Positions 4,109 through 12,722 of a stretch of 20,282 nucleotides of DNA are shown piece after piece. The notes under the pieces were generated by a model. It ran no database searches. It saw nothing but the letters and a program-made list of their open reading frames with translations, and was not told the DNA's origin. This stretch comes from a virus, in IMG/VR virus record IMGVR_UViG_3300039412_000906, positions 1 to 20,282 of that record; one strand, given 5' to 3'. Numbering within the stretch: the first letter of the stretch is position 1; every line of letters starts with the position of its first letter. A program made the position numbers and the translations under genes.

Positions 4109-4579
4109 ATGGTCAAAACGGCCATTTCCCGGAGTGCTGAAGCGCTGGAAACCGAGACGGGGGAGTTGGTGGAGAATGGGGTCATTCTGCATCCGGATCT
4201 GCCGGCGGCGCCGCTCGCGGAGATTCTGCTGGAGGAAGCGGAGCCGGGTCTGCTGCGGGAATTGGGCAGGGCGCTCACGATTCGGCATCTGATACGAGCG
4301 ATCAGGGCGGAGCGGCTGCGCGGCCGAAAGCCGATTGAGTCGGCGCCTCTGTTCGCCGGACTAAATCATCTGCCGCGGACGATCACGCTGGATGGGAAGC
4401 GGAGGGTCTTCGCCAAAGCGAACCGGACACAGCTCCGGGCTTACCTGACGAGCTTGCACGCGCGCCACAAAGACCGCATTGCGGATATCGAAGCCGTTCT
4501 GAAGCTGATGGAACAGTATGCGGCCGGCGAACGAAACGTGAACGTGGCAGCGGTTGCGGCCCGGGTGGCGGGCGAATAG
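4109..4579 (+). CDS. Hypothetical protein upstream of recombinase
   Basis: A 156-aa soluble, acidic-to-neutral helical protein. ATG follows AGGGAGGAAGCG, a strong ribosome binding site. The middle has a basic helix (LIRAIRAERLRGRKPIES), and the C-terminal half is a long helix (LTSLHARHKDRIADIEAVLKLMEQYAAGE). No HTH or metal motif is certain. It abuts the recombinase start with no gap (stop TAG then ATG), so the two are probably one operon and it may assist or regulate recombination. Family not recognised. Confidence 0.7.
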   Translation: MVKTAISRSAEALETETGELVENGVILHPDLPAAPLAEILLEEAEPGLLRELGRALTIRHLIRAIRAERLRGRKPIESAPLFAGLNHLPRTITLDGKRRVFAKANRTQLRAYLTSLHARHKDRIADIEAVLKLMEQYAAGERNVNVAAVAARVAGE

Positions 4580-5356
4580 ATGAGAGCGGCGATCTACGCG
4601 CGGGTATCACGGGAGCGGTGCACGGGTTGCGGGCACGTATTCGACGAGCACAAGGGCGGAACGGGGCGCTGCGGGCATGCGGGATGCAAGTGCCCTGGAT
4701 ACGCAGGGCAGCATCCGGAGAATCAACTGGTGGAGCTGCGGCGGTATGCGACGGCGCAATCGTGGGAAGTGGTGGAGTACATCGATCGGGCCACGGGGAA
4801 GAACTCGGACCGGGACGCGTTCAAGGAACTGTTCGTGGATGCGAGCCGGCGGAAGTTCGACGTGGTGATCGTGTGGGCGCTGGACCGGATGTCGCGCGAG
4901 GGGATCGGCTCGACGTTTGAGCACTTGAAGCGGCTGAAGGGGTACGGTCTGGCGTTCGAGAGCTACACGGAGCCGCAGTTCCGGACGACGGGGCCAGGCG
5001 GGGAGATGTTCGCCGAGCTGATGATCGCGCTAGCGGCGTGGATGGCGAAGCAGGAGCGGCTGCGGATCAGCGAGCGCACGAAGGCCGGCCTGGAGCGAGC
5101 GCGGCGGGCGGGGCGCATTGGCGGGCGGCGCCCGAAGGTATTCGACCGGGAGCGGGCGGAGAAGCTGCGAGCGAAGGGAATGAGCTGGCGTGCGATGGCG
5201 CGGGAGATGGGGATCGCGCACAGCACGATCCGCGATGCGCTCGAGAAGCGGTGTACGGAAAAGCGGCAAAAGGGGCGTACGAGAAACGTCTCGAAAAAAG
5301 GGGTCGTTAAGAGCGCAAATAAAGCAGTTGTGGGGTTGCAGCGGCGGGCTAAATAA
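4580..5356 (+). CDS. Serine recombinase (resolvase/invertase type) with Cys-rich insertion
   Basis: A 258-aa site-specific recombinase. YARVS (residues 6-10) supplies Arg8 and nucleophile Ser10. LDRMSRE (101-107) carries Asp102, Arg103 and Arg106. The long E-helix region (AELMIALAAWMAKQERLRISERT) and a Hin-like C-terminal HTH (RAEKLRAKGMSWRAMAREMGIA) follow. Length fits small resolvases, not 450-600-aa large serine integrases. Unusual: about 30 residues after Ser10 contain Cys14, Cys17, His19, His24, Cys31, His33, Cys36 and Cys38, where relatives go directly to a D-Q-x-x-x-x-Q-L segment (here NQL at 48-50). It may be the phage integrase or an invertase. Confidence 0.9.
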   Translation: MRAAIYARVSRERCTGCGHVFDEHKGGTGRCGHAGCKCPGYAGQHPENQLVELRRYATAQSWEVVEYIDRATGKNSDRDAFKELFVDASRRKFDVVIVWALDRMSREGIGSTFEHLKRLKGYGLAFESYTEPQFRTTGPGGEMFAELMIALAAWMAKQERLRISERTKAGLERARRAGRIGGRRPKVFDRERAEKLRAKGMSWRAMAREMGIAHSTIRDALEKRCTEKRQKGRTRNVSKKGVVKSANKAVVGLQRRAK

Positions 5357-5518
5357 CGGTCGTTTGCCGCACAGGCGAGTTCGGCAAACCCGGCAAATTT
5401 GGCGAAGTCGCGAGAGTCGGCGGGCTTGACGGATCCGGCGGAGAGCCGGGGAAATCGCACGAAAAGACAGGGGCAAGGGGGGGGCCGGAAACTCCATCAT
5501 GCAAAATTGCATGGCGGG
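5357..5518. other. Intergenic region with repeats and a 16-bp dyad
   Basis: No gene is seen. Contents: GTTTGCCG (5362-5369) and CGGCAAAC (5382-5389) as an inverted repeat; three 9-bp units TTCGGCAAA, CCCGGCAAA, TTTGGCGAA in tandem (5380-5406); CCGGC-GGAGA-GCCGG (5435-5449); and CATGCAA-AA-TTGCATG (5498-5513), a perfect dyad with a two-base centre. The region lies between two convergent genes just after the recombinase, where a recombination site, operator or terminator could be. No strong T-run terminator is visible. Confidence 0.4.
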
Positions 5519-7727: not shown

Positions 7728-7972
7728 GGGTGCTTCATGATGTCTTCTAGCAGAGCCGATAGTAGGGCATGGGGTTGCTCGCGCGCGAATGCCTCCATCT
7801 CGGAGGTGACTGAGTCGTACTCGGCGAGAACGGCTCCCAATCGCAAGGCTCCCTCTTTCATGCCGGCGTCGAGCATCTGGGCGTAAGCCGCGCGCGCGGG
7901 CTCGATTAGCATTCCCAGGGCGTTGCGCTGCCGCATGGAAAGGGTGGCCATTTTAGCGACGATAGGGCTCAT
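7724..7972 (-). CDS. Helical hypothetical protein
   Basis: An 82-aa protein. The ATG that overlaps the upstream TGA (ATGA) and lies after GAGG is preferred over a GTG two codons earlier. Sequence is alpha-helical (LSMRQRNALGMLIEPARAA, YDSVTSEMEAFAREQPHALL). No signal peptide or metal site. Its stop forms GTGA with the next start. Confidence 0.6.
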   Translation of the reverse strand: MSPIVAKMATLSMRQRNALGMLIEPARAAYAQMLDAGMKEGALRLGAVLAEYDSVTSEMEAFAREQPHALLSALLEDIMKHP

Positions 7973-8409
7973 ACGCACCTCGAGCAGAGATTAGGAGTGG
8001 CCCAGAAGCAGCCACCGGAACAGGACTTCGACTCGGAACAGCCACAGTGGAAGCAGGAGTGTTCGGCGCCGGCGGCGATGCGCGCCTGGCGCTCGAATTC
8101 CAGAGCCGCGAGAGCCTGCATGGCGGTTAGCGCCTCGGGATTGTCTTCGTCCAGGAGAGTGGGCAGCTCTTCGCGGATGTCGGCCGCCTCTTCGGGGCAG
8201 AGATCATCCTCGGTCACGCGAACCACCTCGAGGTCGCCTGGGGCAATCAGCCGGAATGTGATGATGCGGCGGATTTGCCGTTTGTTGCCGACATAGAGGT
8301 CGTAGTCGTAGTCGTAATCGAAGCCGGCGCCTTTGGTCCGCACGTGCACGCTGGGCAGGTGGATGTGGCGGGGAAGGGCGCGGCGGGATGTGGCGCGAGC
8401 TGGGCTCAT
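7969..8409 (-). CDS. Protein with C-terminal zinc ribbon
   Basis: A 146-aa protein. The N-terminal part is basic, then DYDYDYD (residues 31-37) is encoded by a small trinucleotide-like repeat. The middle is acidic (EEAADIREELPTLLDEDN). The C-terminus carries CFHCGC...CSGGCFW...LCSRC with Cys119, 122, 124, 130, 134, 142 and 145, a dense zinc-ribbon motif recurring at the end of unrelated phage proteins. Coupling by ATGA on both sides. A DNA- or polymerase-binding adaptor is possible. Confidence 0.7.
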   Translation of the reverse strand: MSPARATSRRALPRHIHLPSVHVRTKGAGFDYDYDYDLYVGNKRQIRRIITFRLIAPGDLEVVRVTEDDLCPEEAADIREELPTLLDEDNPEALTAMQALAALEFERQARIAAGAEHSCFHCGCSESKSCSGGCFWATPNLCSRCV

Positions 8410-9013: not shown

Positions 9014-9142
9014 TTAGCTGTCAACACGTTTCCGCCGATTCTGTTTCTTCCGTTTTCGGGGTTTCGGAGTCTTGCCGATGGGCCGATATGCCAGCACCAC
9101 ATCGACGATTTTATCCAGCACTCCGGGGGTTTCCGGTTTCAT
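9014..9142 (-). CDS. Small basic IS-encoded peptide
   Basis: A 42-aa peptide: a helical first half (PGVLDKIVDVVLAYRPIG) and a Lys/Arg-rich tail (KTPKPRKRKKQNRRKRV). Its ATG overlaps the transposase TGA (ATGA), so it is translationally coupled to it. Composition suggests nucleic-acid binding. Small basic genes behind IS1595-type transposases are something I recall, but no function is established to my knowledge. Confidence 0.65.
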   Translation of the reverse strand: MKPETPGVLDKIVDVVLAYRPIGKTPKPRKRKKQNRRKRVDS

Positions 9143-10056
9143 TGGATCAGCCCCTTGTACGTGAGACGTTTCCCGCTCGTGTTGTCGATGAAACTGTCCA
9201 GCCGCTCAAACGTGTGGCGCTTCACGTCGCCATCGTTCAGCCGGAAGGTGAACTCATCGACGTACCGCTGCAAGTGCTTCGGGCTGGCATGGTGGTAGAC
9301 GCCATGGAGCCCGCGCTTCAGGACGGCCCAGACGCTCTCTATGCTGTTGGTAGAGACTGGCCCGCGCGCGAATTCACCAGCCCCGTGGTTTACCGTGTCA
9401 TGGTCAAAGAACAATCCACCGAGATCGTTGTACGCTCCGTGCTCATCGGTGTAGACCTGGGAGCCGACTTCAACCGCGCCATGGATTTCGTTCTGGACAG
9501 TGCCAAGGGCCGTGTCCGGTACGACCATGGCCACGGTCTGACCACCACGCGCGCGCAAGCCAAGGACGGCGGTCTTGCCTACGGAGCCACGGCCCGCGTT
9601 GAGCTTTTTCCATTCGTGCTTGTTGCGCTCTTTTCCGCCGATGAAAGTTTCGTCGATTTCGACGGTGCCTTGGAGCTTTGCCAACTTCGTACCACATGCC
9701 TCGCGCAAGCGCCCCAGAATGAACCACGCGGTTTTCTGGGTCACGCCGATCTCTTTGGCCAGTTGCAGCGAAGAGATGCCCTTGCGGGCCGTAACGAGCA
9801 AGTACATGGCATAGACCCACTTGTGCAGTGGAACATGGGAGCGCTCGAAAATCGTGCCCGTCCGAACCGTGAAATCCAATTGGCAGGCATTGCATCGGTG
9901 GAAGCCGTCCTTGCGTGGGGTAAGCCTGTCCCCCGCGTGGCAAGACGGACAGACCGAGCCATTAGGCCAGAGCCGATCTTCCAGATACGCGCGCGCGGAT
10001 TCTTCGTCAGGGATAAGCTCGAAAAGTTGGAAGGTGCTAATTGTGCTTTTGCTCAT
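9139..10056 (-). CDS. IS1595-family transposase
   Basis: A 305-aa transposase of ISXO2-like type. N-terminal zinc ribbon: CPSCH (residues 36-40) and CNAC (55-58). The catalytic RNase H-like core has Asp135 in EIDETFIGG, Asp204 in YTDEHGAY, and a later NSIE segment (237-240) within the conserved end of the ISXO2 core. The C-terminus (HLQRYVDEFTFRLN) is typical. Length is normal and no frameshift or stop is seen. Starts 3 bases after the stop of the passenger gene. Confidence 0.95.
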   Translation of the reverse strand: MSKSTISTFQLFELIPDEESARAYLEDRLWPNGSVCPSCHAGDRLTPRKDGFHRCNACQLDFTVRTGTIFERSHVPLHKWVYAMYLLVTARKGISSLQLAKEIGVTQKTAWFILGRLREACGTKLAKLQGTVEIDETFIGGKERNKHEWKKLNAGRGSVGKTAVLGLRARGGQTVAMVVPDTALGTVQNEIHGAVEVGSQVYTDEHGAYNDLGGLFFDHDTVNHGAGEFARGPVSTNSIESVWAVLKRGLHGVYHHASPKHLQRYVDEFTFRLNDGDVKRHTFERLDSFIDNTSGKRLTYKGLIQ

Positions 10057-10573: not shown

Positions 10574-10763
10574 TGCGGATGTGACCGGCAGATACGCCCA
10601 CGTTCGCCGGGTGCCGAAGGGCGAGCTGCAATTGCGCGACGGTTCCCAGTGCGGTCGATAGATCGAGGGCGAGATAGATCAGGACGTGGCCGTGATCCAG
10701 GCATTCGGCCGTGGAGCGACGCACCAGCTCGTCCTTCTCGGCGATGGAGATGGGCGGCGTCAT
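10566..10763 (-). pseudogene. 5' part of a gene split by the insertion sequence
   Basis: Encodes the first 66 residues, MTPPISIAEKDELVRRSTAE to GHIRKMI. Its ATG overlaps the replication gene's stop (ATGA). Reading on into the IS adds 34 foreign residues before a stop at 10461, so a 100-aa hybrid could still be made. The restored protein is 99 aa, helical, with a C-terminus ending GDNPAYDKVVPR; I recall similar small proteins in acidobacterial phages. Function unknown. Confidence 0.85.
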
Positions 10764-12373
10764 GTGAGACCTGCCTCTCTGAGAATCTCGCGGGCCCGGA
10801 GGCGATCCATCTCGTCGTAATCGGACTCGTTGGCCAAGACAGCGCGCGCGCGCGCGATGAGATCTTCTTGGCGCCGGCGCTCTTTGTCCTCGATCTGCTT
10901 CCAGTCGTCGCCATCGAACATTTTGGGTACGGCGACGCGGAGGAAGGCGACCGGATTGGAATAGCGCTGGAGATTGAGGCCCATGTCGCGGTTGCCAGGT
11001 CCGAATTCTCGCATCATGGCGCCCTTGCGGTGGATCATGTCGACGACGGTTTCGATGCGGCAGGATGGAGCGCGATTGCGGCAGGCGATTAGGAGGCCGC
11101 GGGCCATATCCTGCTCGACGTGGACAGGGTGGCAATATGTCCGCATGGTGGCCTGGACGATGGAGACTTCGACGGGGGAACCGGCGGCCGTAGACGAGGC
11201 GGAGGCCCTGGGTGCATCTGCCTCCCCCGAGGTGGTCACGAGTGGGCTCTCCGCTCGTTGGGGATTTACGGCCGCCGAAGGACGTGGGGTAGGGGCGGGA
11301 TGGGTGATGCGGTCACGTTCCGCTGCTCCGGCAGTGTCACTTTGCCGCCCCGTAGCGGTAGATTTTCGATTTGGAGAGGCGGCGGGGCTAGGGGTGGGTG
11401 AGCTTCCGGCGGGTTGGAGCGCCGGCGGGTGGCCCTGCGCCGCCTCGTGTTGGAGGCCGACCAAGCGGTTTACGGTCTGCTGCAATTCGGCCCTCGCCCG
11501 AACGAAGGCCTGTAGTGCGGCAGCGAAATCCGGATGGGCGGCTATGACTGGCGCCAGGATACGGTCCGCCGGATCGAGAAATGGCAAAAGGTATTGTGCG
11601 CCGGGATGGTCAGCAGGTTCCAGAGATGGCGAAATATGTTGTGTACTTTCGCTGATTTCAATAGACTTATCGTCCCAAAGGGGTACATCAACCGTACCCC
11701 TTTGGGCTTCGCTTCGTGCGATCGACTCGTCGATGGACTGCTGAATGTTCTTGGCGGGTTTCGGCTGCTGGAGGAGGTAGATGACCACCTTTCCAGCACG
11801 CCTTTTCTGCGCTTCCGAGAGGCTAGAGAGGGGCGTGACATAGCCACGGGCGATCGCGTCGTGGAGGGAAACGCCGGCGAGTTCGCAATAGGCGCGGCTG
11901 TCTGGCTGGCGGTTCCAACGTGCGCGGCAGATCAGACCTTCGTCGTTTTCCATGGACTCGAGGGCGCGCCGCACGCGTGCCTTGGTCGCCAGGACCGCTT
12001 TGAGCTGTTCCTCCGGGAGATGAACCTTCGATTCCTTGCAGGCGCCCCGCGTGGCGGCATTTAATAAGAGGACCAGGTCGTGACTCTGCAGCGGGGTCAC
12101 GTGCTCGGGTGCGTCCTTCCTTTTCGTTACGAGGCGCTCCTTTACGGCAACGCTGTTTTCGTAGCCGGCCGTGCGGAGAATGAGCAGGGACCAGATGCGG
12201 ACTTTCAGCGTCTGGTTCGGGCGCGCCATGGCGTAGACGGGGAGCTTGCCGACGTCCATCCACTCGCCAGGTGCGACGCGATCCCTCTTGAGATGGCGTG
12301 GGACGTACTTCTCTTTGGTCTCGCCGAGGTCCGGATCGAGGGCTTCGGCCTGGGCGCCCTTCCGCGTCAACAT
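10760..12373 (-). CDS. Putative replication/DNA-binding protein
   Basis: A 537-aa protein, first gene of the minus-strand early operon. Residues 1-200 are helical and basic with winged-helix character (LPVYAMARPNQTLKVRIWSL, KARVRRALESMENDEGLICR). Roughly residues 300-410 are Pro/Ala/Ser/Thr-rich and likely disordered. The C-terminal part is again folded and ends in charged helices. This plan fits phage replication initiators with an N-terminal origin-binding domain, but no Walker, primase or nuclease motif is seen. The ATG was chosen because AGGTGG lies five bases before it; an in-frame GTG five codons earlier is the alternative. Confidence 0.6.
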   Translation of the reverse strand: MLTRKGAQAEALDPDLGETKEKYVPRHLKRDRVAPGEWMDVGKLPVYAMARPNQTLKVRIWSLLILRTAGYENSVAVKERLVTKRKDAPEHVTPLQSHDLVLLLNAATRGACKESKVHLPEEQLKAVLATKARVRRALESMENDEGLICRARWNRQPDSRAYCELAGVSLHDAIARGYVTPLSSLSEAQKRRAGKVVIYLLQQPKPAKNIQQSIDESIARSEAQRGTVDVPLWDDKSIEISESTQHISPSLEPADHPGAQYLLPFLDPADRILAPVIAAHPDFAAALQAFVRARAELQQTVNRLVGLQHEAAQGHPPALQPAGSSPTPSPAASPNRKSTATGRQSDTAGAAERDRITHPAPTPRPSAAVNPQRAESPLVTTSGEADAPRASASSTAAGSPVEVSIVQATMRTYCHPVHVEQDMARGLLIACRNRAPSCRIETVVDMIHRKGAMMREFGPGNRDMGLNLQRYSNPVAFLRVAVPKMFDGDDWKQIEDKERRRQEDLIARARAVLANESDYDEMDRLRAREILREAGLT

Positions 12374-12423
12374 ACTGTCCACCTGCACTGCATCGTCGTC
12401 ATACTGTCCACCTGCACTGCATC
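12371..12423 (-). repeat. Tandem duplication of the translation-start module
   Basis: Two identical 24-bp copies (12371-12394 and 12400-12423) separated by five bases. Read on the minus strand each contains AGGTGGACAGTATG, i.e. a ribosome binding site and an ATG. The lower copy starts the replication gene. The upper copy starts an 11-codon frame (ATG at 12402) that stops four bases past the main ATG. Alternatively the repeats may be protein-binding iterons. Confidence 0.7.
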
Positions 12424-12722
12424 AAAAGCACCTCAAAAAAATCTCGAAATTGAGCCTTTGTTGCGCCGGGGAAACGTGCGAAGATGGGGGGGTGATGGTA
12501 CCCGGCGCCCGTGGCCGCATTCAACGCTACTTTCGAGGGTGAGCGCGAGATGCGGTCATGGGCCGAGTGGCGGCCCCCTTCCTTCCTGCGACAATCTACC
12601 CCACGGTTCTAGGGCAATTTGCGACCGGGACACCGATGCCTGGCCACGCTGCGCAGGTACTACCGGCCGGCTGATCCGTTCCAGTCGAACGCCTGCGCGC
12701 TGATGGGGCTGTGACTTCACAA
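12424..12722. other. Intergenic region upstream of the replication gene
   Basis: No convincing gene on either strand; frames are short and lack ribosome binding sites. A run of T bases on the minus strand and the near-palindrome CTCGAAATTGAG (12443-12454) lie just before the duplicated start module. A self-complementary CCGGCCGG lies near 12663. The promoter of the early operon and possibly the origin should be here, but I cannot point to a clear -35/-10 pair. Confidence 0.4.

What the first reader, a model, noticed from the sequence alone, without database searches (positions are those of the whole stretch)
4608..4729. Serine recombinase with a Cys/His knuckle inserted beside the catalytic serine
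Relatives go from YARVS directly to D-Q-x-x-x-x-Q-L. Here some 30 residues with Cys14, 17, 31, 36, 38 and His19, 24, 33 are inserted at that point. A metal-binding loop next to the nucleophile could gate activity by metal or redox state, or add DNA or protein contact. The knuckle resembles C-x2-C-G-H...C-x4-C-x-C segments of small free-standing proteins, suggesting domain capture.
Basis: partly seen in the sequence, partly recalled or inferred. Interest (0 to 1): 0.65.

Follow-up and report, generated by a model that had tools for sequence, protein, structure and literature searches.

The report
Zinc-type loop inserted in phage recombinase
A DNA-rearranging enzyme of a soil bacterial virus carries a small, conserved, probably zinc-binding module spliced into its active-site loop, and at least two distant relatives carry different Cys/His modules at the same place, so the loop seems to be a docking point where these enzymes gain new metal-held parts.

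Summary
ORF 4580-5356(+) is a small serine recombinase (Pfam Resolvase 1e-26, PHROG DNA invertase 2e-36) with its catalytic residues in place. About 30 residues (13-43; 4616-4708), holding 5 Cys and 3 His, sit between Ser10 and Gln44, where most relatives have 3-7 residues in all. In the four distinct insert-bearing sequences (window plus three other phages) all eight Cys/His are invariant, against 6 of 21 other columns. Silent change is near saturation while amino-acid change is not, so the insert is translated and under selection. A near-copy lies in a Bryobacterales MAG next to chromosomal genes. The insert is rare: 5 of 62 aligned relatives. The site is reused: L077 has an unrelated C4 ribbon there (predicted at pLDDT 80-90), L130 a C2H2 knuckle, four others non-Cys inserts. 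Half of the insert shares ligand spacing with metallothionein SmtA, but family membership fails. Most likely this is a structural zinc module in the beta1-alphaA loop adding DNA or protein contacts near the crossover core; metal or redox gating is neither excluded nor supported. A candidate crossover site (26-bp dyad, GT core, in several relatives) lies just 3' of the gene. New variant of a known kind.

The parts
4580..5356 (+). small serine recombinase, 258 aa (catalytic domain, helix E, C-terminal HTH)
   Evidence: Pfam PF00239 1.1e-26, HTH_38 4.6e-7; PHROG 125 DNA invertase 2.2e-36; PDB phmmer best hits are DNA invertases 4m6f, 3uj3
4607..4609 (+). catalytic Ser10 codon
   Evidence: invariant across 36 relatives
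4616..4708 (+). inserted Cys/His module, residues 13-43 (C14 C17 H19 H24 C31 H33 C36 C38)
   Evidence: absent from most relatives, ligands invariant in those that have it
4709..4711 (+). Gln44, the conserved Gln that follows the catalytic Ser in this family
   Evidence: invariant in the 36-row alignment
5123..5248 (+). helix-turn-helix DNA-binding part (about residues 182-223)
   Evidence: PF13936 188-217, PF02796 182-217
5347..5372 (+). candidate crossover site GGCTAAATAACG-GT-CGTTTGCCGCAC, degenerate left half and consensus right half
   Evidence: right half conserved 3' of the gene in relatives; 12-2-12 dyad in L066, L073, L063, L072; single copy in window
4109..4579 (+). upstream ORF that ends directly before the recombinase; homolog in L001 overlaps the recombinase start
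   Evidence: ORF lists and tblastn

Best explanation
A phage-borne small serine recombinase of the resolvase/invertase type has acquired, in the loop between strand beta1 (which ends at the nucleophile Ser10) and helix A (which follows Gln44), a short module whose five Cys and three His bind zinc. Shown: the insertion, its position, translation under selection, invariance of the putative ligands, an intact catalytic set, rarity, and use of the same loop by two other, unrelated Cys/His patterns. Inferred: zinc as the metal (eight ligands suit one or two sites); a folded knuckle that projects from the loop near the crossover core; and a function in adding DNA or subunit or partner contacts that stabilise the recombinase on its site or control synapsis, the metal being structural rather than catalytic. 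The recombinase probably acts at the dyad-type site with a GT core just 3' of its own gene; because each phage record has one clear copy there, multimer resolution or recombination with a second molecule fits better than inversion of a cassette.
For: Insert position and alignment of 36-62 relatives. Cys/His 8/8 invariant against 6/21 other columns, pN well below pS. Counterparts of the gamma-delta catalytic residues (R8, S10, D69, R78, D102, R103, R106) present (roles from general knowledge of gamma-delta resolvase). The same loop carries a C4 ribbon in L077 (three strands, block pLDDT 80-90), a C2H2 knuckle in L130, and non-Cys inserts in L061, L062, L108, L109, so the fold tolerates insertions there; TP901-1 integrase also has a 4-residue longer loop at this point. 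The second half H-x6-C-x-H-x2-C-x-C matches SmtA spacing. Candidate site.
Against: No metal was measured. AlphaFold confidence over the insert is low (pLDDT 55-66). No Pfam or NCBIfam zinc family is reached. Only four distinct sequences carry this form. DNA or partner contact is not observed. The candidate crossover site was noticed after the fact, and its left half is degenerate in all finger-bearing phages.
Confidence: 0.55

Rival explanations
1. Tolerated passenger: the loop accepts folded inserts because it points to solvent, and the zinc knuckle folds neutrally with no role in recombination; the ligands are kept only because losing one unfolds the module and harms the enzyme.
For: Several insert types at this loop, including Lys/Arg-rich ones without a Cys/His set; insert pN is about two to three times flank pN.
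Against: Ligand conservation and fixed boundaries over long divergence (57-60% overall identity); relatives without the insert exist, so deletion would be an easy escape.
Confidence: 0.22
2. Metal or redox switch: loss of zinc or oxidation of the Cys closes or opens the active site, so that recombination responds to metal or redox state.
For: Position within a few residues of Ser10; eight potential thiol or imidazole ligands.
Against: No regulatory evidence. Structural zinc modules are commoner (general knowledge). In A118 integrase, with a Cys-rich segment elsewhere, redox and chelators had little effect (PMC3556126).
Confidence: 0.1
3. Partner-docking module: the knuckle binds a phage or host protein that delivers or activates the recombinase, comparable to the part Fis plays for Hin.
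For: Modules of different kinds at the same place would suit changing partners.
Against: No conserved neighbour gene was found only with the finger-bearing form.
Confidence: 0.13

Closest known systems
Small serine recombinases: Gin/Hin invertases, gamma-delta/Tn3 resolvases (PF00239)
   Same: Catalytic domain and residues, helix E, C-terminal HTH; best PDB matches by sequence and fold
   Different: These go from the Ser to the Gln within a few residues; no Cys/His insert there in the alignments inspected
Large serine integrases with a zinc ribbon (phiC31, LI/A118)
   Same: A zinc part in a serine recombinase
   Different: Their zinc ribbon is in the C-terminal domain and binds DNA (PMC3783163); here the module is inside the catalytic domain and the protein has no large C-terminal domain
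Bacterial metallothionein SmtA/BmtA (PF02069)
   Same: H-x6-C-x-H-x2-C-x-C ligand spacing and local sequence DxHxGGxxxCGHxGCxC
   Different: N-terminal half differs; E 0.17 only; PF02069 gives no match even at E 10
Rubredoxin-like zinc knuckle
   Same: RCT..CG...DE beginning
   Different: Short local match, E 0.23-0.34, no second rubredoxin knuckle

Membership tests
Resolvase/invertase serine recombinases (PF00239) | catalytic domain above curated cut-off | tested here: met
   94 bits against cut-off 23.3
Resolvase/invertase serine recombinases (PF00239) | catalytic Ser and the conserved Arg/Asp set | tested here: met
   R8, S10, R78, D102, R103, R106 invariant
Resolvase/invertase serine recombinases (PF00239) | cleavage with 2-bp stagger and subunit rotation | not testable with these tools
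   needs biochemistry
DNA invertase in the functional sense (Hin, Gin) | two inverted crossover sites flanking a cassette | tested here: inconclusive
   no flanking inverted repeats; one clear motif copy per record next to the gene, but records may be fragments
Large serine recombinases | C-terminal recombinase and zinc-ribbon domains | tested here: not met
   258 aa, essentially only HTH families after the catalytic domain
Bacterial metallothionein PF02069 | match to the family profile | tested here: not met
   no match at E<=10 in four finger-bearing phage records; control rings in Synechococcus elongatus
Known zinc-ribbon families of Pfam | score above curated cut-off | tested here: not met
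   best Zn_ribbon_4 E 0.18, 12.2 bits against 30.3
Zinc-binding module | bound metal with clustered ligands | not testable with these tools
   ligand invariance only; model confidence low and no coordinates

The most novel reading that the evidence does not exclude
The beta1-alphaA loop beside the nucleophile is a recurrent insertion point at which phage serine recombinases gain unrelated metal-held modules that reshape site use. In the finger-bearing lineages the module makes up for a lost half-site: their candidate crossover site keeps one consensus half (2-6 of 12 arm matches), whereas finger-free relatives with a recognisable site mostly keep a dyad (8-11 of 12, one at 6).
Probability: 0.15. 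Interest if true: 0.75.

Novelty: new variant of a known kind. Interest (0 to 1): 0.5.

Why it matters
Zinc parts described in serine recombinases lie in the C-terminal DNA-binding region (PMC3783163). A conserved Cys/His module inside the catalytic loop, and other module types at the same point, would show a natural way to add contacts next to the active site without destroying catalysis. That bears on how these enzymes choose sites and on where recombinase engineers could insert targeting modules.

Tried and rejected
Invertible cassette: no convincing flanking inverted repeats at the recombinase in window, L001, L024, L033, L034, L059, L060, L077. Recombinase as sole integrase of the lineage: 9 of 23 phage records also carry a tyrosine integrase, two of them finger-bearing, and in the Bryobacterales MAG contig the phage-chromosome junction lies at window ~12625, not at the recombinase site. 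Single against several origins of the finger: unresolved, p-AU 0.46. Metallothionein membership: not met. Free-standing homologs of the finger: nothing convincing in 297 Acidobacteriota genomes or in phages. Papers describing such an insert: none found among the held papers.

Full report
What is there. The window is a 20,282-base IMG/VR virus record. ORF 4580-5356(+) encodes 258 residues: a serine recombinase catalytic domain and a C-terminal HTH, closest by sequence among solved structures to DNA invertases 4m6f/3uj3 and by fold to Tn3 and gamma-delta resolvases. The fold model is good for the core and low over the insert. The residues used for catalysis in gamma-delta resolvase (general knowledge) all have counterparts here and are conserved.

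The insert. Residues 13-43 lie between Ser10 and Gln44. In most relatives the whole gap between that Ser and Gln is 3-7 residues; here it is 33. Three other phage records (L033, L034, L042) carry the same module, C-x2/4-C-G-H-x2-D-E-H-x6-C-x-H-x2-C-x-C-x2-Y-x-G-Q, and a 95%-identical protein lies in a Bryobacterales MAG (L001). All eight Cys/His are invariant in the four distinct sequences, against 6 of 21 other ungapped insert columns (Fisher p 7e-4). Silent sites are near saturation in the insert (pS 0.57-0.75) while pN is 0.23-0.25. The insert is therefore translated and constrained, more loosely than its flanks (pN 0.07-0.12) except at the ligands. The sequences are related, so the p-value is indicative only.

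How common. Of 62 aligned relatives, 5 have this module, 1 has a C4 ribbon, 4 have inserts without a Cys/His set, and 52 have none (N-termini). In 257 genomes of the MAG's order, 27 have a relative at E<=1e-30; of those whose N-terminus could be read, only the MAG itself has the finger. In 396 genomes of the phylum only that MAG matched the finger-containing N-terminus at E<=1e-9.

A reused site. L077 carries CPRC-x13-CSSC in the same gap, predicted as a three-stranded ribbon with block pLDDT 80-90. L130, a more distant recombinase, carries KCETCGKKPALHPYAGHEF there. L061/L062 and L108/L109 carry Lys/Arg-rich inserts. TP901-1 integrase has a 4-residue longer loop at this point. The loop thus tolerates insertions, and Cys/His modules of at least three patterns have entered it. 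L077 and L130 are single sequences, so their ligands have no conservation test.

Origin. With the insert columns removed, the tree leaves the two finger lineages apart but unresolved (AU p 0.46 for one clade). Identical boundaries and ligand pattern make one origin, with loss or exchange, the simpler reading. The PDB profile search put the SmtA metallothionein first at E 0.17: window DEHKGGTGRCGHAGCKCPG against DGHTGGSKGCGHTGCNCHG, same ligand spacing. SmtA binds four zinc ions and has a zinc-finger fold (PMC10612145). PF02069 itself does not match, so this is resemblance, not membership.

What the recombinase acts on. Just 3' of the gene, relatives share CGGTCGTTTGYYGCRC: window 5357-5372, directly after the stop codon. 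In L073 and L066 it is part of a 12-2-12 dyad, GTGCCACAAACG-GT-CGTTTGTTGCAC (11 of 12) and GTGCGGCGAACG-GT-CGTTTGTCGCAC (10 of 12), the layout of serine-recombinase crossover sites (general knowledge); L063 and L072 have 9 of 12. Records with a good match have one clear copy, beside the gene (the window). Finger-bearing phages show 2-6 of 12 arm matches; finger-free ones with a recognisable site show 6-11. This contrast was seen after the fact on few, related sequences and is a lead only.

The Bryobacterales contig carries chromosomal genes up to about 20,340 and phage sequence after it. The junction corresponds to window ~12,625, while the recombinase site with its flanks is intact. Nine of 23 related phage records also hold a tyrosine integrase. 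So integration through this site is not supported, and multimer resolution or another single-site role is the better guess.

Mechanism. Structural zinc module in the beta1-alphaA loop adding contacts close to the crossover core: position, ligands and intact catalysis are shown; metal, fold and contacts are inferred. Metal or redox gating is possible but unsupported. The passenger view is the main rival.

Verdict.

Noticed in passing
window 5347-5372; L066, L073, L063, L064, L072, L045 near recombinase 3' end: Conserved dyad-type site with GT core downstream of the recombinase gene, a candidate crossover site; in finger-bearing phages only the right half is clear.
   Followed up: partly
window ~12419-12625; G001:C99 about 20348: Phage-chromosome junction in a Bryobacterales MAG, beside a larC-like gene on the chromosomal side; the repeat TTGTCGCA occurs twice at the junction.
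   Followed up: partly
window 9139-10056 (-): IS1595-family transposase with its own zinc-ribbon, inserted in the phage; a 68%-identical copy in L072.
   Followed up: no
window 7969-8409 (-): Protein with a Cys-rich C-terminus (CFHCGCSESKSCSGGCFWATPNLCSRCV) whose end is conserved in L001 and L069; no PHROG match.
   Followed up: no
L077:4001-4669 and L130 (recombinase on - strand): Unrelated C4 ribbon and C2H2 knuckle inserted at the same loop as in the window protein.
   Followed up: partly
window 10760-12388 (-): 542-residue ORF next to the junction, shared with L001, no significant Pfam or PHROG family.
   Followed up: no
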